64,000 nucleotides of DNA from Deltaproteobacteria bacterium (GTDB lineage: Bacteria > Desulfobacterota > Desulfobacteria > Desulfobacterales > Desulfosarcinaceae). Below, piece after piece: positions 4,319 to 22,860 of this stretch. Location: contig JAHLLR010000012.1 of the NCBI GenBank assembly GCA_020444075.1, positions 1-64,000 of the forward strand, in the 5' to 3' direction. Made by a program: the position numbers and the translations under genes. A model generated the notes under the pieces. That model had not been told where the DNA came from. It did not search any database and saw only the letters and a list, made by a program, of their open reading frames with translations. Each line of letters begins with the position of its first letter. Position 1 is the first letter of the stretch.

Positions 4319-5509
4319 TTAACCGATTTTCAGAATCAGCGAGGCGCCGCAGTCGCCGGCGGCACAGCCTGTCCACAGCAGGTACCCGCCGCCTTGCATG
4401 ACCGCCTCTTCGATGCCTTCCATGATCAGCCGGGTGGCCGTGGATCCCTGGGGATGGCCATAGATCACCGAGGATCCGTAGTTGTTGAAGCCGTCGACGT
4501 CGATCGCCATCTTTTTGGCAAAGTTGATGTCGTTGACCACAAAGGGGTTGTGGGTCTTGATGACCTGGATGTCGTTGATGGACAGTCCGGCCTTTTCCAG
4601 GGCCATGCGGGCTGCCGGGACCGGCGCGGCGGCCATGTAGCCTTTCTTTTCCCTGGCAAAACCGTAGGCGATCACCTGGATGGGAATGGATGGGTCTGCG
4701 CTCAATTGGGCGGCCTTCTTTTTTGTGGTGACCACCATGGAGGCGTTGCCGTCGGCCGGGTGGGTCTGGGCGCCGAAGCTCAGCACCCCTCCGGGCACCA
4801 GGGGTTTGAGTTTGGCCAGTCCTTCGGCGGTGGTGGGCATGATGCCTTCGTCTTCCTCCACCAGGATGCTTTTCTTCCGGGAAAGCTGGATTTCGGCGGC
4901 GAACATGTACCGCTTCTGAAAGGCCCGGTCGTCGGCCAGGGCCATCTGATACTGCTCGTAGCGGCGCACGGCCAGGCGGTCGCACTCCTCCTTGGTGATG
5001 CCTTCCTCCCTGGCTACGTTCTCCGCCGTCTCCACCATGCGCAGGCCCACATTGGGATCGGCATTGAAGTTGTCCATGAGCCAGTTTTCGCTGATCACTT
5101 CACCGCCGGGACCGTTGGGGTTGGGCCAGATGGTATGGGGTCCGTTGGAGGTGCGGTCCGTAGTAAGGACAAATGTGTTTTCGGCCATGCCCGTCTCGAC
5201 GAATGTGGCTGCCTGGAAGATACAGGTGGTGCCGGTGGTGCAGGCCTGGCTGACGGCGATGCCGGGAATACCGCCACATCCCATCAGGGCGGCGGCGTAA
5301 GGCGCGCTGTAGAACTGGTGCGGCTGGCCGATGGTATTGCCGAAGACCAGGTAGTCGAAGATGCCCGGATCCCAGTTCTTGTGAGTGATCCATCGGGCGG
5401 CGGTCTTTGCGCCCAGCACGATGGAATTCTCGTTGGCCATGGCCCCCTGCCAGCGGCAGAACGGGGTCGAGTAGTAACCCTTGTAAGGGATGAACGCTTT
5501 GCTTAACAT
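4319..5509 (-). CDS. thiolase family protein (acetyl-CoA acyltransferase)
   Basis: A 396-residue thiolase, starting at the ATG preceded by AAGGAGGCG. All four thiolase signature regions are present in modified form: the nucleophilic Cys in QACTTGTTC, the HNPF segment in place of the usual NEAF, the GHPQGST histidine motif, and the C-terminal Cys in GCAAGDCGAS. It should cleave a 3-oxoacyl-CoA with CoA to release acetyl-CoA. It is the last gene of the aromatic block, 111 bases after the AMP-forming ligase. A second thiolase of the SCP2 type lies near oah, so the two may serve different chain lengths or branches. The substrate is inferred from context only. Confidence 0.8.
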   Translation of the reverse strand: MLSKAFIPYKGYYSTPFCRWQGAMANENSIVLGAKTAARWITHKNWDPGIFDYLVFGNTIGQPHQFYSAPYAAALMGCGGIPGIAVSQACTTGTTCIFQAATFVETGMAENTFVLTTDRTSNGPHTIWPNPNGPGGEVISENWLMDNFNADPNVGLRMVETAENVAREEGITKEECDRLAVRRYEQYQMALADDRAFQKRYMFAAEIQLSRKKSILVEEDEGIMPTTAEGLAKLKPLVPGGVLSFGAQTHPADGNASMVVTTKKKAAQLSADPSIPIQVIAYGFAREKKGYMAAAPVPAARMALEKAGLSINDIQVIKTHNPFVVNDINFAKKMAIDVDGFNNYGSSVIYGHPQGSTATRLIMEGIEEAVMQGGGYLLWTGCAAGDCGASLILKIG

Positions 5510-5620
5510 ATAAGACGCCTCCTTAAATGATTGATACACGATTCGATGATCAATTGATCAGTGCTGTCAGCCGTACCGGCAATGCCTCAATCCCTGGATT
5601 CCTTAATTCGCAATCGGTTT

Positions 5621-7216
5621 TCATTGCTCCGGGGCTTTGCAACTGTCGGTTTCCGGGAACACCGGCTCGCCGTCGGCGTATTGTTCCCGCAGAATCCGGT
5701 GAAGGATCTTGCCCGTGGCGGTGCGCGGCATCTGGTCCGGCCGGATGAAAAATACCTGCTTGGGGCGCTTGTAGCCGGCCATCCGATCACGGCACCAGTC
5801 GAAAATTATCGCTTCGGTAAGATCCGAACCCTGCCTGGGGATCACTACCGCGGCGACCTTTTCCCCCCACTTGTCGTCCGGCAGGCTGATGGCTGCCACG
5901 TCGAACACATCCGGATGGCTGCCGATGGCTTCTTCCACCTCGCTGGGATAGACGTGCTCACCGCCGGTGATGATCATATTGTCCTTGCGGTCCACGATCT
6001 GGTAAAAGCCGTCCTCGTCCATCTGGGCCATGTCACCGGCTGAAAACCAGCCGTCCTTGAAGGCGGCGGCGGTTTTTTCGGGCAGCTTGTAGTACTCGTC
6101 AAACAGCATCGGACCCTTGGAATAGAGCTCACCCACCTCGCACGGCGGCACCTCGTTGCCCTGCGAATCAAGAATCTTGATCCGGTCGGTGCCCAGGCTC
6201 TCCGACCCGATGGATCCCAGCTTGCGCATCTGGTCCTCGGGCCGCAGGACCGTGACGATGCCTGCTTCCGTTGAGCCGTAGCCCTCGTAGAGCTGAACGC
6301 CGGGAAAAAATTCCATGATGGCGGTCTTCATGGTTTTCCTCACCGGGGCGCTGCTGCAAAGCAGTTTTTTGATGGACCGGGTGTCCCTTCGCCTGCCTTC
6401 GTCGGAGGTGTTGAGGATCAGGTTGTAGTGGGTGGGGATCAGGGAAATAAAGGTGATCTTTTCCCGTTCCACGATTTCCAGAATCTCCTCGGGCCGGAAG
6501 GATCGGGCCGGGTGAATGTATACCGTGGCGCCGATATAGGTGAAAGTGAAGGTGAAGAAGGTGGAGTTGATGTGGCACAGGGGCATGACGTTCATGCACA
6601 CGTCATGCGGGTCGAACCCGAAGTCCACGGCGTTGATCAGGTAGAAGGCGATGTGGGATTCATGGGAGCGAACCACGCCTTTGGGCTTTCCGGTGGTGCC
6701 GGAGGTATAGATCAGAATCCAGGTGTCCGACGGGGCGACCTGGACGTCCGGTTCGTCGTCCGGCGCACCGTCCAGCAGGGATTCGTATTCTCGGTAACCT
6801 GCTCTGGTCCGGTCGACGACGATGTAATTCTCCGGCGGGATTTGTTTCAGCCGACCCTTGATGGCGTCCACACACGGGGTAAATTCGTGATGCACGGCCA
6901 TGGCCTTGGCGTCGGCATTGTTTACGATGTAGGCCACCTCAGGTCCCACCAGACGGAAATTTACCGGCACGATGACAATGCCGGTTTTGGCCGTGGCCAG
7001 GTAGAGTTCGACGATCTCGATGCTGTTTTCCATGAGCACGGCCAGTTTGTCGCCTTTTTCCAGGCCCATCTGCATGAGGCGGTGGGCCAGGCGGTTGACC
7101 CGGCGATTGACCTGGGGATAGGTGAACCGTCGACGGGCGTCACACAGGGCCATGGTCTGAGGATACTTCTTGGCGTTCATCTTGAGCTGCTGTCCCAGGT
7201 TCATCCAATGGGCCAT
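5621..7216 (-). CDS. AMP-forming acyl/aryl-CoA ligase
   Basis: A 531-residue member of the ANL superfamily. The P-loop-like motif YTSGTTGKPKG is near 168, the YGSTE adenylate motif near 315, the hinge region GWFSAGD near 395, and the C-terminal catalytic lysine lies in PRTATGK near 505. It should activate a carboxylic acid to its CoA ester through an acyl-AMP. The substrate is not readable; benzoate, phenylacetate, cyclohexenecarboxylate or a fatty acid are possible. The PRTATGK segment fits the PX4GK motif recognised by lysine acetyltransferases that switch off such ligases, and an AcuA homologue lies at 23811. The start has AAGGAACACCCC upstream of the ATG. Confidence 0.85.
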   Translation of the reverse strand: MAHWMNLGQQLKMNAKKYPQTMALCDARRRFTYPQVNRRVNRLAHRLMQMGLEKGDKLAVLMENSIEIVELYLATAKTGIVIVPVNFRLVGPEVAYIVNNADAKAMAVHHEFTPCVDAIKGRLKQIPPENYIVVDRTRAGYREYESLLDGAPDDEPDVQVAPSDTWILIYTSGTTGKPKGVVRSHESHIAFYLINAVDFGFDPHDVCMNVMPLCHINSTFFTFTFTYIGATVYIHPARSFRPEEILEIVEREKITFISLIPTHYNLILNTSDEGRRRDTRSIKKLLCSSAPVRKTMKTAIMEFFPGVQLYEGYGSTEAGIVTVLRPEDQMRKLGSIGSESLGTDRIKILDSQGNEVPPCEVGELYSKGPMLFDEYYKLPEKTAAAFKDGWFSAGDMAQMDEDGFYQIVDRKDNMIITGGEHVYPSEVEEAIGSHPDVFDVAAISLPDDKWGEKVAAVVIPRQGSDLTEAIIFDWCRDRMAGYKRPKQVFFIRPDQMPRTATGKILHRILREQYADGEPVFPETDSCKAPEQ

Positions 7217-7365: not shown

Positions 7366-7368
7366 CCT

Positions 7369-9441
7369 TCACAGGGCAATCCGCGCATCAACCGCCACGG
7401 CCCCTTTTTCGAAGGCCATGACCGGATTGAGGTCCAGTTCCCTGATCTGGGGAAAGTCGGTCACCAGCTTGGACAGCCGCTGAATCAGATCGACCAGCGC
7501 GGTTTTGTCTACCGGCTTTTCGCCGCGCACCCCGTCGAGCAGGGCGGATGTCCGGATGCCGTCCACCATTTCCCGGGCCTCGGCGTCGGTGACCGGGGTC
7601 AGGTTGAACACCACGTCCTTGAGCACCTCCACGAAGATGCCGCCGAGACCGAACATGACCAGATGCCCCACACCGGGCTCAGCTTTGGCGCCCAGGATCA
7701 CTTCCCGGCCACCGGGTACAAACTGTTGGACGAAAAAGCGCAGGTCCGCGGCGTCGATTTGTTCTTTCATCTTCCTGGCGGCATTTTTCACCGCATCGGC
7801 GTCGGCCAGGTTCACGGCCACGCCGCCCATGTCGCTCTTGTGGACTACGGAAGCGGCATCGGCCTTGACGACGACCGGATAGCCGATGGCCTCTGCGGCG
7901 GCAATGGCACCATCGATATCGTCGGCCATGCGCCACTCGGGCACATCAATGCCGTAGGCTTCAAGGATTTCGTAAACTTGATCGGCAGCCAGCATCGACC
8001 GTCCGTTGGCCTTGACGAAAACGGTCCTGGCGCCAGCGGTGTCCACATCGCCGAATGTCCGAACCCGCCCGGGTGGTCGATCCAGGATGTTGCGGTAGCG
8101 CACCAGGGCGCCCAGGGCCCGGGCGGCATCGCTGGGCAGGGCAAAGCAGGGCACACCGCCCTCCTTGAGGATGGCTTCGGTTCCGGCCCACTGGCGCCGG
8201 TCGGTCATCAGGTTGCAGACCATGGGCTTGATCTGCTGCTGGTTCACCTGGGCGATGGCGGTGGCGATCTTTTCCGTATCCACGAAAAAGGGGGTGACAA
8301 AGTGGACGAGGATGCAGTCGAAACTGTCGTCGGCCATCATGGCCTCAAGGCAGACCAGGTAATGCTCGGCGGTGCCCGTGGCCAGTACATCCACCGGGTT
8401 GCTGATCGATGCCTCGGGATAAAGCTTCTCCGTGAGCATGGCTTTGGTTTTCCCGGAGAGCGGAGGCAGGGTCAGGCCGGCATCCACGAGGATGTCGGTG
8501 GCGATCACCGCCGGACCGCCGGTATTGGTGATAATGCCCACCCGGTTGCCCCTGGGAACCGGCTGTGAGCCGAAGGCCACGGCGGCGTTGATCAGGTGGC
8601 CTTCATCCCTGAAATCGACGATGCCGGCCTTTTTAAAGATCAGGTCGGTGGCCAGGTCTTCCCGGGCCAGGCCGCCGGTGTGGGAGGCGGCCGCCTTGGC
8701 GCCCTCCATGGTTCGGCCGGCCTTCATGGCCAGCACGGGCTTTTGTTTGGTGGCTTGCCGGGCTGCCTCGAAAAATCCCATAGGATCCTTGAGCCCCTCC
8801 ACGTAGGTGACAATGACCCGGGTGCCGTCGTCGTCGGCCAGGTACTGGATGATCTCGGGGATGGAGATGTCGCAGGCGTTGCCGTTGGACGCATAGATGC
8901 GGGTGCCCACATCCATGGCCGAAAATCCCTGGTGGATCACCTCGGCCACCCCGCCGGACAGGGCCACGATGGAGATGTGCCCGGCGTCGGGGAAGGTGAA
9001 CGTGAAGTTGCAGTAGGCGCGCACGGCCGGGTCGGAATTGATGATCCCCTGGCAGTTGGGGCCGAAGATGCGGATGCCGTAGGCCTTGGCCTTTTCCAGA
9101 AAAACCCTTTCGATTTCGGCCCCCTCGGGGCCGGTTTCGGAAAACCCGCCGGAGTTGATGATGATGTGTTTCACGCCCTTTTTGCCGCAGTCTTCCACGG
9201 CCATGGGCACGAATTTGGCCGGGATCACCATGTGGGCCACGTCCACCTGGCCGGGTACGTCGAGAATGGATTTATAGGCCTTGATTCCCCGGATTTCGTC
9301 GGCCTTGGGGTTGATGGGGTAGATTCCCCCCTGGTAGCCGAAATCCAGCAGGTTCTTGATCACGCGGTTGCCGATGTGCAACTCTTTTCCGGAGGCACCG
9401 ATGACCGCCACGCCTTTGGGGTTGAAAAGGGTATCCAGCAT
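7369..9441 (-). CDS. acyl-CoA synthetase (ADP-forming)
   Basis: A 690-residue single-chain synthetase of the Acd family. An N-terminal CoA-binding domain (VAVIGAS near 13) is followed by the ligase-CoA domain with the phosphorylated histidine in ASHTGG near 252, and a C-terminal ATP-grasp domain (from about 475). The enzyme converts acyl-CoA, ADP and phosphate to acid, CoA and ATP, so it saves energy as substrate-level phosphorylation, or runs in reverse for activation. Archaeal relatives accept acetyl-CoA or arylacetyl-CoA. Its position beside iorAB and paaK would suit an aryl substrate, but acetyl-CoA from the thiolases is as likely. The start has AAGGAGCGAGG, and only 12 bases separate it from the preceding gene. 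Confidence 0.9.
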   Translation of the reverse strand: MLDTLFNPKGVAVIGASGKELHIGNRVIKNLLDFGYQGGIYPINPKADEIRGIKAYKSILDVPGQVDVAHMVIPAKFVPMAVEDCGKKGVKHIIINSGGFSETGPEGAEIERVFLEKAKAYGIRIFGPNCQGIINSDPAVRAYCNFTFTFPDAGHISIVALSGGVAEVIHQGFSAMDVGTRIYASNGNACDISIPEIIQYLADDDGTRVIVTYVEGLKDPMGFFEAARQATKQKPVLAMKAGRTMEGAKAAASHTGGLAREDLATDLIFKKAGIVDFRDEGHLINAAVAFGSQPVPRGNRVGIITNTGGPAVIATDILVDAGLTLPPLSGKTKAMLTEKLYPEASISNPVDVLATGTAEHYLVCLEAMMADDSFDCILVHFVTPFFVDTEKIATAIAQVNQQQIKPMVCNLMTDRRQWAGTEAILKEGGVPCFALPSDAARALGALVRYRNILDRPPGRVRTFGDVDTAGARTVFVKANGRSMLAADQVYEILEAYGIDVPEWRMADDIDGAIAAAEAIGYPVVVKADAASVVHKSDMGGVAVNLADADAVKNAARKMKEQIDAADLRFFVQQFVPGGREVILGAKAEPGVGHLVMFGLGGIFVEVLKDVVFNLTPVTDAEAREMVDGIRTSALLDGVRGEKPVDKTALVDLIQRLSKLVTDFPQIRELDLNPVMAFEKGAVAVDARIAL

Positions 9442-9453
9442 GGTCCTCGCTCC

Positions 9454-10701
9454 TTATTTGTTTTCCGCCAGTTGCTCGATGAAGGCCTCCACGTTGGTTT
9501 TGGTCTGCTCGTCGGAAATCAGCCGCAGGTCGTTCAGGTCGCCGTTGATGGTCAGGCTGGGGATGCCGGACTGCCGCTCGATGCGCTGGGGCATGCCGTA
9601 GCGGCAGTTGGAGTTGTTGGGGCAGGTTTTGGCGTCGTGGTAGATGATGCCGTCCACCTTGAAGAATTTCAGCATCTCCTTGATGTAGGCTTCCTTGGGG
9701 GTGTCGGCACGAACGATGAACAGCTCCGTGTAGGCCCGGGCCATGGAGTTGAAAGGATCGTCCGGGTCCAGGGCGGAGAAGATCCAGGAGTTGCAGTAGG
9801 TCGAGGCCAGTACATTGGTTTTCAGGGAGGCGAACAGCTTGGCGTGGGCGGACAGCCGACCCCAGACGGGCATGCCGTCCCAGTAAATCCGGAACTGCTC
9901 GTCTTCAACGGCCCCTTCCTTATCCGCGATGCGCTGGTTCAGCTCCGCCAGCAGGGTGCGGTAGCAGTCATTGGCTCGCTGGGTTCCCCGGCCCACCACG
10001 GCAGCGCCCATGAGGGTGGTGCCGTCGAAGAAGGTGATGGGCGATGGCACGGCGGCGGCGGTGTCCAGCACCTGCTTCCACAGGTCCGAGCATTCCCGCG
10101 ACAGGGCCACGGTCTCCTTGAGCCGGTCCATATCGAACGTGTTGCCGACGATGCGTTCCAGCGGGGGGATCAACGCTTCCATCTGCGCGGCAATGGATTT
10201 CACGTGGGACGCTTCCACCTCCTGGATACCCACATAGGAGTGGACGCCCACCACCGGCACGTCGTACTCTTCACCGTAGAAATTGAACCAGTCCTGCACG
10301 TCGCGGCACTGGTTGGTGTTGAACACCAGGACGTCCGGCTTTGGTGGCCCCTGGATGCCTTCGAAGATCTTGGCCAGGGGGGATACCTTTTCCAGGTAGG
10401 CGCCGATGTCGGCAGTAAGATAGGAACAGATGTCCGGTGAATAGCCCACGGCGTTGGCTTTGGGAATCAGCTCCGTGGCCATGCGCGAGGATCCCAGCAT
10501 GGCCGAGTGGGTTTCCGGAAAATAGACCAGAAAACCCATGGCCCGCAGAATCTCCGCCGGACCCACGCTGGTGCACCAGGCGATTTTTTTCTCACCGGTC
10601 TTGGCGGCGTTGTCCAGCTCGTAGTAGTAGTCGGCCATGAACTTGCCCAGCACCTTGGACGATTCAAGCCGTTTCAGTTTGATCTTCTTCTCTTCAGACA
10701 T
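9454..10701 (-). CDS. HgdB/BcrB-type 2-hydroxyacyl-CoA dehydratase or benzoyl-CoA reductase-like protein
   Basis: A 415-residue protein (ATG preceded by CCGGAGGTACGGC) of the family that contains HgdB, BcrB/BcrC and double-cubane cluster proteins. Cysteines at 43, 92 and 132 match the family pattern (for example PDICSYLTADIG), and two more lie at 360 and 366 in TCPNNSNC. Length and the DIC-Y-ADIG region resemble class I BcrB. Such proteins receive very low-potential electrons from an ATP-driven activase and use them for ring reduction or alpha-hydroxyacyl-CoA dehydration. The activase gene lies 94 bases upstream. No second large subunit is encoded nearby, unlike Hgd (two) or class I Bcr (two plus two ATPases), so a homodimer as in DCCP is possible. 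Context points to aryl-CoA chemistry; the reaction itself is unproven. Confidence 0.8.
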   Translation of the reverse strand: MSEEKKIKLKRLESSKVLGKFMADYYYELDNAAKTGEKKIAWCTSVGPAEILRAMGFLVYFPETHSAMLGSSRMATELIPKANAVGYSPDICSYLTADIGAYLEKVSPLAKIFEGIQGPPKPDVLVFNTNQCRDVQDWFNFYGEEYDVPVVGVHSYVGIQEVEASHVKSIAAQMEALIPPLERIVGNTFDMDRLKETVALSRECSDLWKQVLDTAAAVPSPITFFDGTTLMGAAVVGRGTQRANDCYRTLLAELNQRIADKEGAVEDEQFRIYWDGMPVWGRLSAHAKLFASLKTNVLASTYCNSWIFSALDPDDPFNSMARAYTELFIVRADTPKEAYIKEMLKFFKVDGIIYHDAKTCPNNSNCRYGMPQRIERQSGIPSLTINGDLNDLRLISDEQTKTNVEAFIEQLAENK

Positions 10702-10795
10702 GCCGTACCTCCGGTAAGTAAATTGGGGGATTGAGGGAATCAGGAATGGGTGAGTGAGAATCAATTAATACCTCGAGGCCCGGATCCCTTAATTT

Positions 10796-11611
10796 TCAAT
10801 TCCCAAACGTTTCTCTCGCAATCAGCGCTGCCCCCAATGCGCCGGTGAACTGGGGCAGTTCCGGCACCAGAATGGGGCGGTTGATCAGCTCCTGGGTCAT
10901 TTCCACCAGGTAGGGGTTATGGGCCACGACCCCGCCAGTCATCACCACCTTTTCGGTGAAGGCGTCCATCTCCTTGATTCTTGAAATGACCGAGAAGAAC
11001 AGTCCCTTGACGATGTCTTCCACCCGTTTACCCCGACGGATGTTCTCCAATACCTCGGTGGCGGAAAAGACCGTGCAGAAACTGCCCAGCTTGACCATGT
11101 CCGTGGATGCCGCGGCAAGGCCGTTCATTTCCGTCAGGGGGATGTCCAGTCGGGGGGACATCTCCTCCAGAAATGCGCCGGTGCCGGCGGCGCACTTGCG
11201 ATTCATCTTAAAGGACGTCCGTTTGCCGTTTTCATCCAGTTTGATGATCTTATTGTCCTGGCCGCCGATATCGATAATGGTGATCGCAAAGGGAAAATAG
11301 TGGAAGCACCCTTTGCCGTGGCAGCTTATTTCGGTGCGGTAGTCATGGGCATAGGAGACGTTCTTTCGGCCGTATCCGGTGGATATCGTACGTGCAATCC
11401 GATCTTTTTCAATATCTGCCATGGCCAATGCCTCGGTCAGGCATCGATCGGCAGTGGCCGTAAAATCCGTTCCCGACCGGTCGACACAATAACCGAGCAT
11501 ATAGCCGTCGGCATCGATCACCGCCACTTTGGTTCGGGATGCCCCCACGTCGGCACCGGCGAAGCAGGGTGGGTAGAGGTTTTGGGAAATGGTCTCCTTG
11601 ACTGTCGGCAT
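10796..11611 (-). CDS. CoA-substrate-specific enzyme activase (HgdC/BcrA-type ATPase)
   Basis: A 271-residue ASKHA-fold ATPase. Phosphate-binding DVGASRTK lies at 21-28 and DIGGQDNK at 114-121; the cluster cysteines are C140 in KCAAGTG and C179 in FCTVFS, which in a homodimer hold one [4Fe-4S] cluster. The activase couples ATP hydrolysis to transfer of one low-potential electron to its partner iron-sulfur enzyme, here almost surely the gene just downstream. A longer frame begins at 11716, but the added residues are not family-like and the ATG at 11609-11611 follows AGAAGAG. Only one such ATPase is present, whereas class I benzoyl-CoA reductase uses two different ones. Confidence 0.88.
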   Translation of the reverse strand: MPTVKETISQNLYPPCFAGADVGASRTKVAVIDADGYMLGYCVDRSGTDFTATADRCLTEALAMADIEKDRIARTISTGYGRKNVSYAHDYRTEISCHGKGCFHYFPFAITIIDIGGQDNKIIKLDENGKRTSFKMNRKCAAGTGAFLEEMSPRLDIPLTEMNGLAAASTDMVKLGSFCTVFSATEVLENIRRGKRVEDIVKGLFFSVISRIKEMDAFTEKVVMTGGVVAHNPYLVEMTQELINRPILVPELPQFTGALGAALIARETFGN

Positions 11612-11654
11612 GGTTCGCTCTTCTAACCCGGGTATACCGTAAACAACAGAATAC

Positions 11655-11930: not shown

Positions 11931-11936
11931 ATTATG

Positions 11937-12884
11937 TTACAGTCTGGACTCCAACCCCTTCACCAGGCTCTGCAGGGTCATGTTATAGGGGGTTTCAATG
12001 CCGGCCCGCCGGCCGTATTCTACGAACTTGCCATTGATGTAGTCGATTTCGGTGCGTCGGCCGTTTTCGATGTCCATGAGCATTGAGGGCTTGTGGTTGC
12101 CGGCGTTGCGCATGTATTCGATGGCGTTGGGGTAATACTCCCAGCCCAGCAGGATCTCATTGGCCCGGGCGACCTTGACGCACTCTTTGACCAGAGCGTC
12201 GACGAGGTTGAAAATGATCGGGTCGTTCATGGCCTGGGACATGGTCAGGCCGGTCACGGCGCACACCGGGTTCATGCAGGCGTTGAGCACCCCTTTGCGC
12301 CACACCATGGCGATGATGTCTTCCGTATGGCGGGTGGGCAGGCCGCAGGCGGTCAGCGCATCGGCAATGGCATCGGCGGCGAATTTGGCCTCCGGGTCCA
12401 GCTCCTGAATAAAGTGGGGCGGGTGGTGAAAGGGAATCGTAACATGAGCCGGCCCCAGAAGGCCGCAGCCGTAGTTGACCACTGCCCGCATCACCGGTTC
12501 TTTGCCCAGGCTTTTGGCCAGAACCAGTTCGGTGTCGATGCCGTTCTGCCAGCTCACCACATAGAGGCCTTTTTTATGGAATCCCTCGATGGCCGATGCG
12601 ATCAGCGGCAGGACATTGGCTTTGACGGTGACGAAAATAACATCGGGCTTGTAGTCCGGCAGGGAGTCGATGCTGGTGCAGGTGTGGCTGACCGTCTGGG
12701 TTAGCTTTTCGGCCCCTTCGATGATAATTCCCCGTTTCAGGGCCGGTTTGAGAAGATCAGGGATGACGTCGCACAGAATTACCTCATAGCCCCCCTTGGC
12801 CAGGAATGCGGACACGATACAGCCGACGGGACCTGCACCAATGACGGCAAAGGTTTTGGGGACAAAGGGTTGTTTGTCTGTCAT
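11937..12884 (-). CDS. PanE/ApbA family ketoacid reductase (2-dehydropantoate 2-reductase-like)
   Basis: A 315-residue protein with the N-terminal Rossmann motif VIGAGPVGC at about 14-22, the family segment VTVKAN and WQNGID near 113, and the helical C-terminal domain. Family members reduce 2-oxo acids with NADPH; the classical case is ketopantoate. The place within an aromatic operon, directly after paaK, makes an aryl 2-oxo acid or another pathway ketone a fair guess, and some PanE relatives are general 2-hydroxyacid dehydrogenases. A pantothenate role is not supported by any neighbour. The start has CGGAGG seven bases before the ATG. Confidence 0.75.
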   Translation of the reverse strand: MTDKQPFVPKTFAVIGAGPVGCIVSAFLAKGGYEVILCDVIPDLLKPALKRGIIIEGAEKLTQTVSHTCTSIDSLPDYKPDVIFVTVKANVLPLIASAIEGFHKKGLYVVSWQNGIDTELVLAKSLGKEPVMRAVVNYGCGLLGPAHVTIPFHHPPHFIQELDPEAKFAADAIADALTACGLPTRHTEDIIAMVWRKGVLNACMNPVCAVTGLTMSQAMNDPIIFNLVDALVKECVKVARANEILLGWEYYPNAIEYMRNAGNHKPSMLMDIENGRRTEIDYINGKFVEYGRRAGIETPYNMTLQSLVKGLESRL

Positions 12885-12898: not shown

Positions 12899-14206
12899 TT
12901 ATCGGAACTGTTTGGGCCGTTCATCAACCACGCGAAGGGCCTTGCCCTCGCTTCGTGCAATGAACTTGGGTTCCACGAGGTTTACCTCCACGCTGATTCC
13001 CATGTGACCGCGGATGTGGGCCATAATTTTGGCTTCCACTTCAAATTTCTTGCGGTCGCCTGCCGCATAAACGTCCTGTTTCGCCTCCACTTGCACCACC
13101 AGTTGATCCAGATAGCCTTTTTTTCGAACCAGCATGCGGTACTGAGGTTCCACCTCCTCGATATCCAGCAGCAGGGATTCGATCTGTGAGGGAAAGACAT
13201 TTACGCCGCTGATGATCAGCATGTCGTCGGTCCGACCAAAAATTTTATCCATTTTGACGAATGTTCTGCCGCAGACGCATTTTTCGCGGTACAGGCGGGT
13301 GATGTCTTTAGTGCGGTAACGGATCATGGGCATTGCCCGACGCTGAAGGGATGTGAAGATCAACTCGCCCTTTTCACCCAGCGGAACCGGTTCAAGGGTG
13401 ATGGGGTCGACCACTTCGGCCAGGTAGTAGTCTTCGTTGATGTGGATACCGCTCTGGGCCTCGCAGTCGAAGCCTACACCGGGGCCGCCCAGTTCGGTAA
13501 GACCATAAGCCTCCATGGCCTTGATTCCCATGCGCGCCTCGATCTCTTCACGCATGCCGGCGGTCCAGGGTTCGGCGCCGAAAATGCCGATGGAGAGCGG
13601 CAGTTTTTTCAGATCCACCTTGAGTTCCTCTGCCCGTTCGGCAATGGTCAGGGCATAGGATGGCGTACAGCACAGCACGTTGGTCTCGAAATCTTTTAAC
13701 AGGGTGATCTGGCGTTCGGTCAGCCCGGAACTGGTGGGCACAACCGTACAGCCCATGGTCGTGGCGCCCTGGTGAAATCCCAGGCCGCCCGTGAACAGGC
13801 CGTAGCCGTAGGCGTTTTGAACCACGTGCCCGGGTCTGACCCCGGCAGCATGAAAGTTGCGCGCCATGCACTCGCCCCACTGTACCAGGTCGTCGGCGGT
13901 ATACGGGCCGGTGATGGGTTTGCCCGTGGTTCCGGACGAGGCATGAACGCGCATCACGTCCTTTAAGGGAACGGCGCACAGGCCGAAGGGGTAATTGTCC
14001 CGCAGATCATTTTTTACCGTGAAAGGAAGTTTGGCCACGTCCTCGATGCCCTTGATGTCGGCGGTCTTGATACCCGCTTCCTTGAATTTTTTCTTGTAAA
14101 ACGGAACGCGTTTGGTCACCCACTCAAGGGTTTCCTGCAGCTTTTCCACCTGAAACTGATGAATCTGCTCCACCGCCATGCATTCGAACTTCTCATTCCA
14201 GGGCAT
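12899..14206 (-). CDS. paaK: phenylacetate-CoA ligase
   Basis: A 435-residue PaaK-type ANL enzyme. It starts at the ATG following GAAGGAGG; the family opening MPWNEKFE is intact. The ATP-binding motif SSGTTGKPITGPY lies near 95, the adenylate motif EAYGLTE near 240, and the short C-terminal domain ends in the PaaK style (VDERPKQFR). It makes phenylacetyl-CoA (or a related arylacetyl-CoA) from acid, ATP and CoA. It lies 69 bases after iorB, an arrangement known in anaerobes where IorAB and PaaK-like ligases handle aryl pyruvates and arylacetates. Unlike the ligase at 5621, it has no obvious PX4GK motif. Confidence 0.9.
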   Translation of the reverse strand: MPWNEKFECMAVEQIHQFQVEKLQETLEWVTKRVPFYKKKFKEAGIKTADIKGIEDVAKLPFTVKNDLRDNYPFGLCAVPLKDVMRVHASSGTTGKPITGPYTADDLVQWGECMARNFHAAGVRPGHVVQNAYGYGLFTGGLGFHQGATTMGCTVVPTSSGLTERQITLLKDFETNVLCCTPSYALTIAERAEELKVDLKKLPLSIGIFGAEPWTAGMREEIEARMGIKAMEAYGLTELGGPGVGFDCEAQSGIHINEDYYLAEVVDPITLEPVPLGEKGELIFTSLQRRAMPMIRYRTKDITRLYREKCVCGRTFVKMDKIFGRTDDMLIISGVNVFPSQIESLLLDIEEVEPQYRMLVRKKGYLDQLVVQVEAKQDVYAAGDRKKFEVEAKIMAHIRGHMGISVEVNLVEPKFIARSEGKALRVVDERPKQFR

Positions 14207-14275
14207 CGTTTTCCTCCTTCTCAATGGTCGGTTTTCCCCGGGCATGCCCGGGGCACAGTCACTTTTTACGCAGCT

Positions 14276-14869
14276 TCAGGCGTTGGCTGCCGCGATGAAA
14301 CCCAAGTCAAAGGCTTTAAGGTTCACATCCACAAAGGCCTTTTTGGTCTTGGTACGGATGGCTTCCACCAGATTTTCCTTGGGGATGGGCAAAATGCCTG
14401 TCTGGATCAGCGCGCCGAGCAGGACGATATTCACGGACATGACGTTGCCGGCAGCCGTGGCCCGTTCAACGGCATCAAAAGCGATGAGTCGTCTGGTTTT
14501 GGCTTTGATCAGGTCCTGAACCTGGTCCAGGTCCGGATAGGTACCTCTGCCGATCGCCACGGTAAAGGGCGGCAGGGGCGCCAGATTGGTAATGACGGTG
14601 GTGCCTGCATTGCACTTGTTCATGGCCCGCAGGGTCTCGGAGGGTTCGAATCCGACCAGTACGTCGGCTTCGCTGTCTGAAATGATGGTGCTGCTGGCAT
14701 CGCCGAACACGATGGCAGACTCCACCACCCCGCCTCTCTGGGCCATGCCGTGAATTTCGCTCATGCGCACCGGAACACCGGAAAGCAGAGCTGCCTGGCC
14801 GAGGACTTTGGAGGCCAGCAGGTTGCCCTGGCCTCCCACCGCTACGATAATCAGTCTTGTTGTCTTCAT
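14276..14869 (-). CDS. iorB: indolepyruvate ferredoxin oxidoreductase, beta subunit
   Basis: A 197-residue gamma-domain protein of the 2-oxoacid:ferredoxin oxidoreductase family. The motif GGQGNLLASK is at 13-22, followed by SEIHGMAQRGG, both diagnostic of IorB. With IorA it oxidises aryl pyruvates (indole-, phenyl-, hydroxyphenylpyruvate) to arylacetyl-CoA, CO2 and reduced ferredoxin. Reduced ferredoxin could feed the activase/BcrB-like pair of the same operon. The gene follows iorA by about 107 bases. Confidence 0.92.
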   Translation of the reverse strand: MKTTRLIIVAVGGQGNLLASKVLGQAALLSGVPVRMSEIHGMAQRGGVVESAIVFGDASSTIISDSEADVLVGFEPSETLRAMNKCNAGTTVITNLAPLPPFTVAIGRGTYPDLDQVQDLIKAKTRRLIAFDAVERATAAGNVMSVNIVLLGALIQTGILPIPKENLVEAIRTKTKKAFVDVNLKAFDLGFIAAANA

Positions 14870-14976: not shown

Positions 14977-16839
14977 TCAGCCGGCTTTTTTTGCCTTGAC
15001 CGGTGTAATGGCATTTTCCGGGCAGATCTGCGCACAGACCGCGCAACCCACACAGGTGTTGGGATTGATCTGGACCCGTTCCCCTTCCAGGAAAAAAGCC
15101 GGGCAGCCGATCTGGTTGATACAGTCCCGGTGGTTCTTGCATTTGTCCGTGACCGTGAAGGCCCGCACGTTGAGTTTTTTCAAACTGCGGGCGTACAGGG
15201 TGCACATCTCCTGGGAGATGATCACCGACACGCCCTTGTGGTCCAGCGCCGCCTTCACCGCTTCGATGCTCTTATTAACCTTGTAGGGCTTGATGACGGT
15301 AACGTGTTCGACGCCAATGGCTCGCACTACCGCTTCTATTGAAATGCGTCCGTAACCGGACAGGTTCAGGTTGCTCATGTCCACCCCGGGATTGGGCTGG
15401 TGGCCGGTCATGGCGGTGGTGCCGTTGTCCAGGATGACCAGGGTGAAGTTGTGGTTGTTGTATACGGCGTTGACCAGGCCGGTCAGCCCCGAGTGAAAGA
15501 AGGTGGAGTCGCCGATGAAGGCGATCACCTTCTTGTCGGTTGCTTTGGAAAAGCCGCAGGCGGTACTCACCGACGAGCCCATGCAGATGAGAAAATCACC
15601 CATGGCCAGCGGGGGCAGAAAACCCAGGGTGTAGCAGCCGATGTCCGTGGGATAGATCGTTTCCCTGCCTTCGGCGGCTTTTTTTACCGCATAATAGGTG
15701 GCCCGGTGGGAGCACCCGGCACACAGATTGGGTGGTCGCTGGGGGATTTCCGGCACGTCGGACAGGTCTGGCGGCTGGCTGGGGGCGTGCGGTACACCGA
15801 AATAACCCGCCATCACCCGTCGGACCATGGCCGGATCGAACTCATAGAGCCTTGAGAACAGACGTTCGCCCTTGCCGGCGATGGGCAGGGTCAGTCCGGC
15901 TTCCTGGGCAAATGCCTTGACGGCCTCCTCCATGACGGGTTCGCCCTCTTCCGCCACCAGCACTTTTTCGCAAGCGTTCAGGAAGGCTTTGATCAGGTTC
16001 GGCGGCATGGGGTGAGAAAAACCCAGGCGAAGAATTCGGGTCTTGTCGGCGATGCCCAAATCCTTCACCGCGTCGGAAACGTAGTTGTAGCTGACACCGT
16101 TGCAGATGATTCCCCAGGTGCCGTTGCCGTCGGTGAAGTTGAAAGTGGAGGTTTCGGCCATGGCCTGGGCCTTGTCCCAGTTTTCCAACAGGCGCACATG
16201 AAGGCGGCGGGAGACGGCCGGTACGGTGACAAAATTGAAGGGGTCCTTTTTAAAATCACCCTTGATTTTGCGGGGTGTTATTTTTCCCAGTTCCACGAAG
16301 GCGCTGGAGTGGTTGACGCGGGTGGTCGTGCGCAGGATCACCGGCTCGCCCAGTTTTTCGGACAGGTCAAAGGCTTCGGCGGTCATTTGCCGGGCCTCTT
16401 CCACCGAGGACGGTTCCAGGATGGCCAGGCCGGAGAGCTTACCGTAATACCGATTGTCCTGTTCGTTCTGGCTGGAGAACATGGAGGGATCGTCGGCCGT
16501 GAGAATAACCAGCCCTCCCTTTACCCCCACGTAGGCCAGGGTCATCAGCGGATCCGCTGCCACGTTCAGGCCGACGTGCTTCATCATGCAGAAGGTGCGC
16601 AGTCCGCTGTTGGCGGCGGCGGCGGCTACTTCCAGCGCGACCTTTTCATTGGTGCTGTATTCAAAGTAAAGGTCGCTTTCATGAGAAACCCGGAACAGGT
16701 TAAGTGAAATTTCTGACGAGGGGGTGCCCGGGTAAGTGGTGGCAAAGGCCACGCCGGCCTCGATGGCTCCGCGGGCGATGGCTTCGTTGCCCAGGAGCAG
16801 CATTTTTTTCCCGGGGCTGTCTGCGAGTAGTTTGTGCAT
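14977..16839 (-). CDS. iorA: indolepyruvate ferredoxin oxidoreductase, alpha subunit
   Basis: About 620 residues. The N-terminal pyrimidine domain (GNEAIARGAIEAGV, then TYPGTPSSE) is followed by the TPP-binding domain (GDSTFFHSGLTGL near 475) and a C-terminal ferredoxin-like domain with cysteines of two clusters (CKNHRDCINQIGC and CVGCAVCAQICP). It is the catalytic subunit paired with IorB. I chose the ATG at 16837-16839, which has CAGGAAACC upstream; an in-frame ATG 21 bases earlier lacks a good ribosome binding site. It begins 78 bases after had. Confidence 0.92.
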   Translation of the reverse strand: MHKLLADSPGKKMLLLGNEAIARGAIEAGVAFATTYPGTPSSEISLNLFRVSHESDLYFEYSTNEKVALEVAAAAANSGLRTFCMMKHVGLNVAADPLMTLAYVGVKGGLVILTADDPSMFSSQNEQDNRYYGKLSGLAILEPSSVEEARQMTAEAFDLSEKLGEPVILRTTTRVNHSSAFVELGKITPRKIKGDFKKDPFNFVTVPAVSRRLHVRLLENWDKAQAMAETSTFNFTDGNGTWGIICNGVSYNYVSDAVKDLGIADKTRILRLGFSHPMPPNLIKAFLNACEKVLVAEEGEPVMEEAVKAFAQEAGLTLPIAGKGERLFSRLYEFDPAMVRRVMAGYFGVPHAPSQPPDLSDVPEIPQRPPNLCAGCSHRATYYAVKKAAEGRETIYPTDIGCYTLGFLPPLAMGDFLICMGSSVSTACGFSKATDKKVIAFIGDSTFFHSGLTGLVNAVYNNHNFTLVILDNGTTAMTGHQPNPGVDMSNLNLSGYGRISIEAVVRAIGVEHVTVIKPYKVNKSIEAVKAALDHKGVSVIISQEMCTLYARSLKKLNVRAFTVTDKCKNHRDCINQIGCPAFFLEGERVQINPNTCVGCAVCAQICPENAITPVKAKKAG

Positions 16840-16917
16840 CGTGGTTTCCTGTAAAGTCATACTGCAGCCATCCGAATTTTCCGTCAGCTGCAGCAACGGT
16901 TGTTGTCAACGATAGCG

Positions 16918-17991
16918 TCAGGGCACCATGATCGCCCGCTGAACGATCTTTTTGTGGTGGACCCTGTCGAAGACCGTATTGATGTCCGACAGCGGAAACG
17001 TTTTGACAAACGGTGCCATCTTCACCTGGCCGGAAAGGACCAGGTCCCGCACCGGTGCATAATACCGGGTCAGGCAGCCCCAGTTGCCCCGTGCGGTGGC
17101 ATGGAAGGCCATGAGGTTGGACAGGCGGATGTCCACCGAATCCATGGTAAAACCCACCACGGAGAGGTTGCCCCCGAAGGTCATGAGGCCGAAGGCGGTT
17201 TTCTGGCCGGCGGCGGTGCCGGAGGTTTCGAAAATCTTCCATTCGGTCCGGCGTTTTCCCTGCTCCTTGACGAAGGTCGAGACCGCCTTGCGAAGGTCCT
17301 TGAATGCCATCTCGGCGGCGTTGAAGGTTTTGTCCACCATGGGTTCCAGTGCCTTCAGCTTGACCGGGTCTACATCGATGGCCACCACCAGTGCCCCGAA
17401 GGCCTTGGCGATCTGGGCGCCGAAGCCGCCCACCCCGCCGACACCCACGAAAATGGCCGTATCATCGGCGGACAAGCCGGCATCGACAACGGCCTGGTAG
17501 GGGGTTGTCAGGGCATCCGCCACCACGGACAACTGGGCCAGGGATACGTCTGCCTTTCCAACGGGCCGGTATTGATCGTCTACCGGAACCTGACACAGCT
17601 GCCCGGACGGAACGACGATATGGCTGGCAAATCCACCCTGGATATCGTTTCCGGGCATCTTCTGGGCCGTGCAGATGTTGCCCAGGTCCCGATTGCAGAC
17701 GTCGCACGATCCGCAGGGCATGACCGCGGGGATGATCACTGCTTTGCCTTCCCACTGACGGGCGTCGGGTCCTGCGGCGGTGACAATGCCGCTGATTTCA
17801 TGTCCCAGGGTCAGGGGAAGCGGTGATTTGGTTTTCACACCATCGTAGTAAAACCCCAGGTCCGTGTGACAAACACCGCATCCGGCCACCTTGACCAGCA
17901 CTTCACTGGGGCCGGGGTCAGGGATCGGTGCTTCCACCTTTTCCAAGGGCTTTCCGGGTTCTGTCATCTGCCAGGATATCATGGACGCCAT
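16918..17991 (-). CDS. had: 6-hydroxycyclohex-1-ene-1-carbonyl-CoA dehydrogenase
   Basis: A 357-residue zinc alcohol dehydrogenase of the Had type. Catalytic zinc ligands sit in GCGVCHTD near 38 and GHE near 65; the structural zinc cysteines are in CGSCDVCNRDLGNIC at 97-111; the NAD motif is GVGGVGGFGAQ near 185. Overall wording follows Had of Thauera and BamQ-type enzymes. It oxidises the 6-hydroxyl to the 6-oxo compound in the benzoyl-CoA pathway between Dch and Oah, both present in this operon. It is separated from dch by a 372-base gap with a repeat, so it may have its own promoter. Confidence 0.9.
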   Translation of the reverse strand: MASMISWQMTEPGKPLEKVEAPIPDPGPSEVLVKVAGCGVCHTDLGFYYDGVKTKSPLPLTLGHEISGIVTAAGPDARQWEGKAVIIPAVMPCGSCDVCNRDLGNICTAQKMPGNDIQGGFASHIVVPSGQLCQVPVDDQYRPVGKADVSLAQLSVVADALTTPYQAVVDAGLSADDTAIFVGVGGVGGFGAQIAKAFGALVVAIDVDPVKLKALEPMVDKTFNAAEMAFKDLRKAVSTFVKEQGKRRTEWKIFETSGTAAGQKTAFGLMTFGGNLSVVGFTMDSVDIRLSNLMAFHATARGNWGCLTRYYAPVRDLVLSGQVKMAPFVKTFPLSDINTVFDRVHHKKIVQRAIMVP

Positions 17992-18363: not shown

Positions 18364-19134
18364 TTACCTGTTCTTCCATACCGGCCGACGTTTTTCCTCG
18401 AAACTCTTGATCCCTTCCAGGGTATCTTGGGTTTTCATCAAGGTGTTGAGAAACAGATCGCTGACATTGGAAAGGGCCTGTTTGAATCCCAGTCCCAGGT
18501 GAGCGGTGACGGCCCGCTTGTTGAGTCGGATGATCAGCGGGCTGCACGCCTTGATTTCACCCACGAGGTTGTCCAGGGTTTCGGCAAAGTTGTCTTCACC
18601 GGACAGATGAGCCACCAGCCCCATGCGGTGCGCCGCTTCGGCTTTGTAGCGGCGGCCGGTGGTGCAGATCTCCACGGCCCGGGCCGGACCCACCAATTGG
18701 GGCAGCCGGATGGCCGCGTAGGGCGGGAAGAAGCCCAGCTTGATCTCCGGCTGGCCGAAGACCGCCTTGGGGGATGCCACGATGATGTCACAGGCCATGG
18801 CCACTTCCATGCCGCCGCCCAGGCAGGCACCGTGGACCGCTGCAATCGTCGGCACGGCCATGCGGTGAATCCGTTCAAAGATGCCGTTGAAAGTCGCGAT
18901 CATCTCGTCAACCATCCCCGGTTTGTGGTCGGCCACCTCTACACCGGCACACCAGCTGGGCCCGTTGGCCGCCAGTATCACGCACTTGAGCGACCCGTCG
19001 TTGGTCAGGGTTTCCAACAGTCCATTGAGTTCGTTCATCATCTCGATGTTGAGCACATTGTGCTTGGGCCGGTCTAGGGTCAGGGTGGCGACCCCCTCAA
19101 CGCTATCATGTTTGATTAATTTCAGATGCGACAT
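18364..19134 (-). CDS. dch: cyclohexa-1,5-dienecarbonyl-CoA hydratase
   Basis: A 256-residue crotonase-fold enzyme. The oxyanion-hole regions are WCAGVEVADH near 61 and HGACLGGGMEVAMACD near 106; the wording, including FPPYAAIRLPQLVG, follows Dch/BamR. It adds water to cyclohexa-1,5-diene-1-carbonyl-CoA, the product of benzoyl-CoA reduction, giving 6-hydroxycyclohex-1-ene-1-carbonyl-CoA for Had. A TAAGGAAAAAG ribosome binding site precedes the ATG. It follows the DUF35 gene by 63 bases. Confidence 0.9.
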   Translation of the reverse strand: MSHLKLIKHDSVEGVATLTLDRPKHNVLNIEMMNELNGLLETLTNDGSLKCVILAANGPSWCAGVEVADHKPGMVDEMIATFNGIFERIHRMAVPTIAAVHGACLGGGMEVAMACDIIVASPKAVFGQPEIKLGFFPPYAAIRLPQLVGPARAVEICTTGRRYKAEAAHRMGLVAHLSGEDNFAETLDNLVGEIKACSPLIIRLNKRAVTAHLGLGFKQALSNVSDLFLNTLMKTQDTLEGIKSFEEKRRPVWKNR

Positions 19135-22761: not shown

Positions 22762-22860
22762 CAGTTCCTCCCTCTTGGCGGCCGGCAAAAGGGCCGCCGG
22801 TTTAGTAATGTCGCTGTTCCGGTTTTACCGGGACTCAATTGTTCAGGGTCAGGCGGGGCG

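What the first reader, a model, noticed from the sequence alone, without database searches (positions are those of the whole stretch)
9454..11611. Two-gene BcrB-like protein plus activase in place of a known benzoyl-CoA reductase
Class I benzoyl-CoA reductase needs two large subunits and two ATPases; class II needs BamB and partners. Here only one HgdB/BcrB-type protein (Cys 43, 92, 132, 360, 366) and one HgdC-type ATPase (Cys 140, 179) lie amid ring-cleavage genes. This fits either a simplified, ATP-driven dearomatising reductase or a double-cubane cluster protein recruited to aromatic metabolism. Neither has been described to my knowledge in such an operon.
Basis: partly seen in the sequence, partly recalled or inferred. 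Interest (0 to 1): 0.72.

Follow-up and report, generated by a model that had tools for sequence, protein, structure and literature searches.

The report
Lone-subunit dehydratase for aromatic amino-acid breakdown
A pair of genes that was taken for a stripped-down benzene-ring reductase looks instead like an ATP-primed enzyme that removes water from an aromatic lactic-acid derivative before the ring is opened, apparently without the second subunit that its described relatives carry.

Summary
In detail: window 9454-10701(-) encodes an HgdB/BcrB-type protein and 10796-11611(-) its ATPase, with no second large subunit beside them. The reading "in place of a benzoyl-CoA reductase" is not supported: the same genome has two BamB copies, and of 395 genomes of the phylum 57 of 64 carriers also have BamB, against 48 of 331 non-carriers. 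The protein forms its own clade on the catalytic-subunit side of the superfamily; its model is closest to HadB of 2-hydroxyisocaproyl-CoA dehydratase (Z 49.0, 1.7 A). Across bacterial phyla and archaeal MAGs it lies near its activase (42 of 45 loci), a ketopantoate-reductase-like dehydrogenase (38) and a CoA ligase (40). Six of 78 carrier genomes scanned hold no other PF06050 protein. Best reading: an activase-primed (R)-2-hydroxyacyl-CoA dehydratase without the usual second subunit, probably phenyllactyl-CoA to cinnamoyl-CoA, feeding benzoyl-CoA. Two extra, nearly invariant cysteines (43, 303) lie at or beside double-cubane ligand positions. Reaction, substrate and oligomeric state are inferred, not shown.

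The parts
9454..10701 (-). HgdB/HadB-like catalytic-type protein (415 aa), proposed lone subunit of an aryl-lactyl-CoA dehydratase
   Evidence: PF06050 2.6e-65; AF2 pLDDT 91, closest fold HadB Z 49.0; own clade
10796..11611 (-). HgdC-type activase (271 aa) with the two cluster cysteines 140 and 179
   Evidence: PF01869 5.7e-44, TIGR00241 202.7 bits over cut-off 125.4; matches MbdQ, HadI and HgdC chains; both Cys in 25 of 25 rows, 22 of them distinct
11937..12884 (-). ketopantoate-reductase-like dehydrogenase (KPR), proposed arylpyruvate to (R)-aryllactate
   Evidence: PF08546/PF02558 and TIGR00745 above cut-off; PDB kin; near the pair in 38 of 45 loci
12899..14245 (-). PaaK-like aryl-acetate CoA ligase
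   Evidence: TIGR02155 531.5 bits, cut-off 646.3 not reached
14276..14869 (-). IorB, beta subunit of indolepyruvate:ferredoxin oxidoreductase
   Evidence: PF01558; TIGR03334 200.4 bits, cut-off 205.8 not reached
14977..16896 (-). IorA, alpha subunit
   Evidence: TIGR03336 773.3 bits over cut-off 650.9
7369..9441 (-). ADP-forming acyl-CoA synthetase (ACD), candidate ligase for the hydroxy acid, 12 bp from the dehydratase gene
   Evidence: Pfam ATP-grasp_5/Succ_CoA_lig/CoA_binding_2; spacing
5621..7216 (-). AMP-forming acyl-CoA ligase (FadD-like)
   Evidence: PF00501 3.3e-86
4319..5539 (-). thiolase (thiolA)
   Evidence: PF00108/PF02803; TIGR01930 181.1 bits, cut-off 240.55 not reached
16918..17991 (-). 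6-hydroxycyclohex-1-ene-1-carbonyl-CoA dehydrogenase (Had), ring beta-oxidation
   Evidence: TIGR03201 494.5 bits over cut-off 338.65
18364..19134 (-). crotonase; Dch or, as I suggest, a cinnamoyl-CoA hydratase
   Evidence: TIGR03189 162.7 bits, cut-off 292.5 not reached
19198..19629 (-). 143-aa protein with a Cys4 zinc-ribbon-like motif next to the thiolase (name from sight)
   Evidence: no NCBIfam hit at 1e-30 (Pfam not run on it); present in the closest loci
19680..20846 (-). thiolase (thiolB, Thiolase_C_1 type)
   Evidence: PF22691 1.6e-43
20865..21611 (-). SDR dehydrogenase, candidate 3-hydroxyacyl-CoA dehydrogenase
   Evidence: PF00106; the ORF runs to 21779, start trimmed by me
21628..22788 (-). 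Oah/BamA, 6-oxocyclohex-1-ene-1-carbonyl-CoA hydrolase
   Evidence: TIGR03200 556.3 bits over cut-off 464.45

Best explanation
The pair is a (R)-2-hydroxyacyl-CoA dehydratase that works with a single kind of large subunit. The activase (10796-11611) uses ATP to push one electron into the [4Fe-4S] cluster held by Cys 92, 132 and 360 of the large protein (9454-10701); the reduced cluster turns the thioester of an aryl-lactyl-CoA into a ketyl radical, the 2-hydroxyl leaves, and an aryl-acrylyl-CoA (cinnamoyl-CoA) is formed while the electron returns to the protein. Neighbouring genes supply the substrate (IorAB/PaaK and an arylpyruvate, KPR to the hydroxy acid, ACD or FadD to the CoA ester) and use the product (crotonase, SDR, thiolases to benzoyl-CoA and acetyl-CoA; then the class II reductase elsewhere and Had/Oah here). 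Shown by computation: family, fold, cluster-ligand positions, conserved gene neighbourhood, absence of a second family member in six genomes, co-occurrence with BamB. Inferred: the reaction, the substrate, the homodimer.
For: Model fold closest to HadB, the catalytic subunit of 2-hydroxyisocaproyl-CoA dehydratase (Z 49.0, 1.7 A over 392 residues; BzdO 44.2, MbdO 41.7, double-cubane protein 32.2, HadC 31.6). Best NCBIfam match is HadB (219.8 bits, under its cut-off 750). The three cluster cysteines are Cys in 116 of 116 family sequences, and S45 and E63, which align with BzdO Ser44/Glu65 next to the cluster water, are also invariant. Neighbourhood: activase 42, KPR 38, CoA ligase 40 of 45 loci with 5 kb on both sides. 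In a Chloroflexi locus (L150) a fused 3-hydroxyacyl-CoA dehydrogenase/enoyl-CoA hydratase lies just before the gene, and eight other Chloroflexi-type loci have a distant crotonase hit there (not scanned further); a spirochaete locus has GlcD/GlcF-like genes between the large protein and the activase. Six of 78 carrier genomes scanned have no other PF06050 protein (G015, G016, G021; G163, G281, G181). Aromatic link: 57 of 64 carriers have BamB against 48 of 331 non-carriers; Ior, PaaK, Had and Oah neighbours.
Against: No activity, metal or oligomer data. The dehydratases of this type described in the reviews that I saw are alpha-beta heterodimers, so a defining feature is not met. 72 of 78 scanned carriers have at least one further PF06050 match, the own genome included, which has a HadB/HadC-like pair with activase that could lend a subunit. 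MbdO, a real ring reductase, has Gly and Phe where BzdO has Trp46 and His131, so these residues do not exclude a reductase. 7 of 45 loci lack a KPR hit (one of them, L151, has an ApbA_C ORF). In Desulfococcus multivorans the related cluster is described as turning phenyllactate into phenylpyruvate, the opposite direction, and a phenylglyoxylate route is proposed there (PMC5109826). The extra cysteines 43 and 303 have no role in a plain HadB-like site. The association with BamB is not corrected for relatedness.
Confidence: 0.6

Rival explanations
1. A simplified, ATP-driven dearomatising reductase: the large protein reduces benzoyl-CoA or another aryl-CoA with one activase.
For: The protein belongs to the O-type half that holds BzdO and MbdO, Had and Oah genes are in the same gene run, and four carriers have Oah but no BamB at my threshold (G117, G157, G367, G375).
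Against: 57 of 64 carriers have BamB, the own genome has two; 48 BamB-bearing genomes are without it; no N-type subunit, which in BzdNO carries the electron-storing double cubane (PMC11971306); KPR, Ior and the CoA ligases have no place in that reaction.
Confidence: 0.1
2. An alpha-type dehydratase that borrows the beta subunit of another operon in the cell.
For: The own genome encodes a HadB/HadC-like pair with activase on another contig, and 72 of 78 scanned carriers have further PF06050 matches.
Against: Six carrier genomes (completeness 87-100%) have no second PF06050 match; all 12 other non-PDB O-type rows of the tree have an N-type ORF in the same locus, none of the 100 regions of this family does.
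Confidence: 0.12
3. A double-cubane-type reductase of small or CoA-bound molecules recruited to aromatic metabolism.
For: One kind of large subunit and one activase, and two of the three distal double-cubane cysteine positions filled or nearly so (C303 in the same column as BzdN Cys263 and the DCCP cysteine, C43 one column off BzdN Cys36).
Against: The third distal cysteine (BzdN Cys293) has no counterpart; NCBIfam double_cubane 66.5 bits under cut-off 350; tree position in the other half; a DCCP above the cut-off is present in the genome at C148.
Confidence: 0.08
4. A reductive dehydroxylase or 2-hydroxyacyl-CoA enzyme of other chemistry (for example on mandelyl-CoA or an aliphatic hydroxyacyl-CoA).
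For: KPR-type enzymes also include D-mandelate dehydrogenases (recalled); most archaeal and spirochaete loci show no ring genes in the stretch seen.
Against: The association with BamB and Oah and with Ior favours an arylpyruvate-derived substrate with a beta hydrogen.
Confidence: 0.1

Closest known systems
(R)-2-hydroxyisocaproyl-CoA dehydratase HadBC with its activator (PDB 3O3M, 4EHT)
   Same: fold of HadB (Z 49.0, 29% identity), three cluster cysteines, one activase, a 2-hydroxyacid dehydrogenase and CoA activation as helpers (the last two recalled for Had)
   Different: no HadC; extra Cys 43 and 303; CoA ligases where Had uses a CoA transferase (recalled)
Phenyllactyl-CoA dehydratase FldABC of Clostridium sporogenes (as described in PMC13416013, passages read)
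   Same: proposed reaction; activase (FldI, recalled)
   Different: Fld has two large subunits and a CoA transferase; no Fld sequence was at hand for a direct comparison
Class I benzoyl-CoA reductases BzdNOPQ and MbdONQP (PDB 8S02, 9GAI)
   Same: O-type subunit fold (Z 44.2 and 41.7), activase family
   Different: those have an N subunit (with a double-cubane cluster in BzdN) and two ATPases; here one and one
Double-cubane cluster protein DCCP (PDB 6ENO, 7YYL)
   Same: one kind of large subunit plus one activase; a cysteine at one distal ligand position (C303)
   Different: different half of the tree; third distal cysteine missing; score far under the NCBIfam cut-off
Phenylacetate/phenylpyruvate cluster of Desulfococcus multivorans (PMC5109826, passages read)
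   Same: IorAB, CoA ligases, hydratase, dehydrogenase and thiolase formed with phenylpyruvate or phenylacetate in a sulfate reducer with a bam cluster and no PadB
   Different: the passages read name no HgdB-type protein, and give phenyllactate to phenylpyruvate as the direction; I did not look at that genome

Membership tests
2-hydroxyacyl-CoA dehydratase (component D) | HGD-D fold with three cysteines for a [4Fe-4S] cluster | tested here: met
   PF06050, fold, C92/C132/C360 in 116 of 116 sequences; the cluster itself is not shown
2-hydroxyacyl-CoA dehydratase (component D) | alpha-beta heterodimer with a second, HadC-type subunit | tested here: not met
   no second PF06050-type ORF in 100 of 100 regions (91 distinct); none in 6 of 78 carrier genomes scanned
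2-hydroxyacyl-CoA dehydratase (component D) | NCBIfam HadB equivalog cut-off | tested here: not met
   219.8 bits, cut-off 750; a narrow equivalog model
2-hydroxyacyl-CoA dehydratase (component D) | dedicated activase with two cluster cysteines per subunit | tested here: met
   near the gene in 42 of 45 loci
2-hydroxyacyl-CoA dehydratase (component D) | dehydration of a 2-hydroxyacyl-CoA | not testable with these tools
   needs enzyme assay
Class I benzoyl-CoA reductase | two large subunits (N and O type) and two ATPase subunits | tested here: not met
   one of each
Class I benzoyl-CoA reductase | NCBIfam BcrB and BzdO cut-offs | tested here: not met
   140.8 against 486.55 and 76.8 against 448.6
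Class I benzoyl-CoA reductase | ATP-dependent reduction of benzoyl-CoA | not testable with these tools
   needs enzyme assay
Double-cubane cluster protein | NCBIfam double_cubane cut-off and place in the DCCP clade | tested here: not met
   66.5 against 350; DCCP clade apart, 100/99 support
Double-cubane cluster protein | six cysteines at the [8Fe-9S] ligand positions | tested here: not met
   three proximal and C303 present, C43 one column off, BzdN Cys293 position empty
Double-cubane cluster protein | [8Fe-9S] cluster | not testable with these tools
   needs metal analysis and structure
Class II benzoyl-CoA reductase | tungsten AOR-type catalytic subunit BamB | tested here: not met
   the pair has no such domain; BamB is elsewhere in the genome

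The most novel reading that the evidence does not exclude
The operon is a route from phenylacetate (and phenylalanine) to benzoyl-CoA that replaces the PadB-I pathway in strict anaerobes: PaaK makes phenylacetyl-CoA, IorAB carboxylates it to phenylpyruvate, KPR and a CoA ligase give phenyllactyl-CoA, and a partnerless dehydratase, which keeps its own electron in an enlarged cluster built with Cys 43 and Cys 303 at the old double-cubane site, makes cinnamoyl-CoA for beta-oxidation to benzoyl-CoA plus acetyl-CoA. The enzyme would be a living intermediate between homodimeric double-cubane proteins and heterodimeric dehydratases.
Probability: 0.18. Interest if true: 0.85.

Novelty: new variant of a known kind. 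Interest (0 to 1): 0.62.

Why it matters
The described enzymes of this radical family split the work: one subunit binds substrate, the other stores the electron. A family, spread over several bacterial phyla and archaeal MAGs, that manages with one kind of subunit would show how small this machine can be and give a handle on how double-cubane proteins, dehydratases and ring reductases are related. It also offers a testable candidate for a gap stated for a sulfate reducer: how phenylacetate and phenylpyruvate reach benzoyl-CoA without PadB and PadEFGHI (PMC5109826, passages read).

Tried and rejected
Benzoyl-CoA reductase reading: rejected as the main explanation because BamB is present in the genome and goes along with the family. 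The first AOR-type protein that I tried (L092) scored best with aldehyde oxidoreductases, not BamB; the BamB genes were found by reading further stretches. Of the 14 AOR-type genes only three were compared with the PDB.

Double-cubane reading: rejected on score, tree and the missing third distal cysteine. I first thought that six cysteines (43, 92, 132, 303, 360, 366) could hold a full double cubane; the wider set shows C366 in only 91 of 116 (N 13, S 11, A 1), so that was dropped.

BzdO His131/Trp46 as markers of ring reductases: rejected, because MbdO lacks both. In the smaller alignment BzdO is misaligned in the first block; I used for it. The part of BzdO around the C303 column was not printed, so BzdO is not known there.

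A simple gene caller lost genes to antisense frames, so presence counts were remade with tblastn. Of 80 named loci only the 45 with at least 5 kb on both sides were counted; 35 were left out. 'Dch' hits of about 30% in that table are distant crotonases. The 80 loci are the best of 352 relatives that the scan found, so distant members are under-represented. One search had 25 rows of which three were repeats of the same gene.

Trees: 219 profile hits were cut to 165 (at least 330 aa, distinct core), then to 94 at 82% identity plus 7 PDB chains; a 54-row tree chosen by hand with bootstrap agrees. Long PDB branches make the exact sister group of the family uncertain. The fold comparison ranks only Foldseek's own matches.

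Of 86 genomes in which a full or partial gene was seen (25, 61 more), 78 were scanned for PF06050; 8 were left out, for a partial gene or low completeness but by no fixed rule (G032, G040, G064, G249, G256, G393, G430, G440). In some searches only three or four first-look candidates per genome were scored, so a missing BamB or Oah is not proof of absence.

Paper searches that gave nothing on a one-subunit dehydratase; on carboxylation of phenylacetyl-CoA by Ior: (one listing on Asgard archaea, not opened). Only open-licence papers are held, so absence from print is not shown. PMC1924859 (passages) reports an HgdC-like gene but no catalytic subunit in Geobacter metallireducens and did not bear on the question. 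PadB was not searched in this genome.
Full report
What is there. Window 9454-10701(-) encodes a 415-aa protein of Pfam HGD-D (E 2.6e-65) and 10796-11611(-) a 271-aa BcrAD/HgdC-type ATPase. The two genes sit in a run of 15 genes on one strand (4319-22788); 12 of the 14 gaps are 152 bp or less, the others 325 and 372 bp (with starts chosen by me). In order of transcription: Oah, SDR, thiolase, a small Cys4 protein, a crotonase, Had, IorA, IorB, a PaaK-like ligase, a ketopantoate-reductase-like dehydrogenase (KPR), the activase, the large protein, an ADP-forming and an AMP-forming CoA ligase, and a second thiolase. Had, Oah and IorA pass their NCBIfam cut-offs; the crotonase does not pass the Dch cut-off (162.7 of 292.5), and PaaK and IorB miss theirs too.

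Is a benzoyl-CoA reductase missing? No. Among 14 AOR-type genes of the genome at least two are BamB: 1269.6 and 988.7 bits to the BamB structure 4Z3W. The first is followed by ORFs that look like BamC, BamD (TfrB-like, 174.3 bits under cut-off) and BamE (HdrA2-like, 788.3 bits under cut-off) (the Bam letters are from sight and memory). I then asked the same of 395 genomes of the phylum. The window protein's family is in 64 of them at E up to 1e-110, BamB in 105 at 1e-180, Oah in 103 at 1e-100. 57 of the 64 carriers have BamB against 48 of 331 non-carriers; 53 of 64 have Oah against 50 of 331 (Fisher p about 1e-31 and 4e-26, not corrected for relatedness). So the protein goes with the class II benzoyl-CoA pathway, does not as a rule replace it, and is not needed for it. 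Against this reading: four carriers have Oah and no BamB at my threshold, and three have neither.

What family is it? By AlphaFold2 (58 sequences, pLDDT 91.0, pTM 0.90) and structural alignment the closest solved fold is HadB, the catalytic subunit of 2-hydroxyisocaproyl-CoA dehydratase (Z 49.0, 1.7 A, 392 residues), then BzdO (44.2) and MbdO (41.7), with the double-cubane protein (32.2) and HadC (31.6) clearly lower. In a 101-row tree the family is one clade (57 rows, SH-aLRT 99) within the half that holds HadB, BzdO and MbdO; DCCP, HadC, BzdN and MbdN are in the other half. A 54-row tree gives the family 100/100 support, apart from a HadB-like group (100/100) and from DCCP (100/99). Its exact sister group is unsure because the solved reference proteins have long branches.

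A catalytic subunit without partner. The own genome has six PF06050 genes: this one, a DCCP (476.8 bits, above cut-off), a HadB/HadC-like pair with activase (both under the Had equivalog cut-offs), and another pair with no PF01869 hit on its 14-kb contig. By contrast all 12 other non-PDB O-type rows of the tree have an N-type ORF in the same locus. Of 86 genomes in which the gene or a piece of it was seen, 78 were scanned with PF06050: six hold only this one protein (G015, G016 and G021, completeness 95, 97 and 87; G163, G281 and G181, completeness 99, 100 and 95). In the five of these six whose locus I held, the activase is next to it; the three that were in the BamB and Oah searches (G163, G281, G181) have both. 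The other 72 have further matches (in G057 only one under the Pfam cut-off). This says that the enzyme can do without a second HGD-D subunit in those genomes; it does not show that it forms a homodimer, and in the window's own genome a borrowed subunit is not excluded.

What does it do? The neighbourhood is kept over phyla. In 45 named loci with at least 5 kb on each side the activase is present in 42, KPR in 38, a CoA ligase (ACD or FadD) in 40, the thiolase in 20, IorA and IorB in 17 each, PaaK in 16, Had in 11, Oah in 5. By record title the 80 named loci come for the most part from Desulfobacterota or 'Deltaproteobacteria', and also from Chloroflexi/Anaerolineae, Spirochaetes, Thermoplasmata and other archaea, and Ignavibacteria; most are MAGs, so single odd records may be contaminants, but the Chloroflexota rows (5, SH-aLRT 97) and archaeal rows (3, 100) kept in the tree form their own groups. 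In L150 (Anaerolineae) a fused 3-hydroxyacyl-CoA dehydrogenase/enoyl-CoA hydratase lies directly upstream; eight other Chloroflexi-type loci show a distant crotonase hit at the same place. In one spirochaete GlcD- and GlcF-like genes lie between the large protein and the activase. A 2-oxoacid-reducing enzyme, a CoA ligase, an activase-driven HadB-like protein and beta-oxidation enzymes are what a 2-hydroxyacyl-CoA dehydratase needs. With Ior, PaaK and the BamB association the likely substrate is phenyllactyl-CoA or a ring-substituted relative, the product cinnamoyl-CoA, and the sink benzoyl-CoA. All of this paragraph after the counts is inference.

The cysteines. In 116 family sequences (over 50% identity to the window protein, distinct in a 180-residue core) C92, C132, C303 and C360 are invariant, C43 is Cys in 115, C204 in 109, C366 in 91. 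C92, C132 and C360 align with BzdO Cys95, 128 and 380, which hold the catalytic [4Fe-4S]-OH2 cluster (PMC11971306: abstract, sections 8 and 12 and passages). S45 and E63 (116 of 116) align with BzdO Ser44 and Glu65; that HadB Ser37 and Glu55 are the dehydratase counterparts is recalled. C303 shares its column with a distal double-cubane cysteine of BzdN (Cys263 by counting in the printed chain) and with the DCCP cysteine there, and is not Cys in HadB, MbdO or the 11 other O-type rows compared (BzdO not printed there); C43 is one column away from BzdN Cys36, and MbdO and two of those 11 rows also have Cys at the C43 column. The third distal cysteine (BzdN Cys293) has no counterpart. So the family keeps part of the old second-cluster site. 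Whether it binds anything is open, and it is the most interesting unexplained point.

A link to an open question. In Desulfococcus multivorans the proteins formed with phenylacetate and phenylpyruvate include IorA3B3, CoA ligases, a dehydrogenase, a hydratase and a thiolase; PadB and PadEFGHI genes are absent; its authors propose phenylglyoxylate as intermediate and call the step from there to benzoyl-CoA unclear; IorA3B3 is also formed, at lower level, with phenylacetate, which they read as gratuitous induction (PMC5109826, passages read). If Ior runs in the carboxylating direction, the present operon would close that gap; the same paper's phenyllactate-to-phenylpyruvate assignment for neighbouring genes runs the other way. 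Desulfosarcina variabilis was grown on phenylacetate and phenylpyruvate (PMC11887813, passages read), and the closest named loci here are Desulfosarcina MAGs (94 and 93%). The 2026 benzene paper (PMC13416013, passages read) looks for a phenyllactyl-CoA dehydratase in its sulfate reducer and mentions a singular gene, BzS1_13720, 30% identical to FldB; that could be a member of this family, which I could not test.

Known or new. Two reviews (PMC11574389, PMC8473912, passages read) describe the dehydratases as heterodimers, and my searches of open papers found no one-subunit form. I file it as a new variant of a known kind: it works, as I read it, like a 2-hydroxyacyl-CoA dehydratase, but does not meet the subunit criterion by which that family is defined.

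Noticed in passing
G000 C134, locus L209:10251-12535 (-): A second, divergent pair of HGD-D proteins (O-type and N-type, long branch, no NCBIfam match at 1e-40) with no activase hit on the 14-kb contig.
   Followed up: partly
G000 C148, locus L001:1216-2562 (+): A double-cubane cluster protein by NCBIfam (476.8 bits, cut-off 350), with a small Cys-containing protein encoded just upstream.
   Followed up: no
G000 C154:97844-99562 (-): A 1456-aa open frame with two activase domains in tandem (PF01869 twice).
   Followed up: no
L207:5755-7722 and L208:5592-7604: Two BamB paralogs on different contigs; one beside BamC-like, TfrB-like and HdrA-like ORFs, the other beside a BamC-like ORF in the stretch read (names partly from sight).
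   Followed up: partly
L157:2519-5165 (Spirochaetes MAG): GlcD- and GlcF-like genes sit between the large protein and the activase, as if a 2-hydroxyacid oxidase served the same hydroxy acid.
   Followed up: no
window 18364-19134: The crotonase next to Had is under the curated Dch cut-off and may be a side-chain (cinnamoyl-CoA) hydratase instead of Dch.
   Followed up: no
L161, L176, L190, L193, L194, L202: Archaeal MAG records carry the family; L161, L176, L193 and L194 with ACD, FadD and KPR, L202 with FadD and KPR, L190 (3 kb only) with ACD. In L161, L176, L193 and L202 the activase gene is on the opposite strand.
   Followed up: partly
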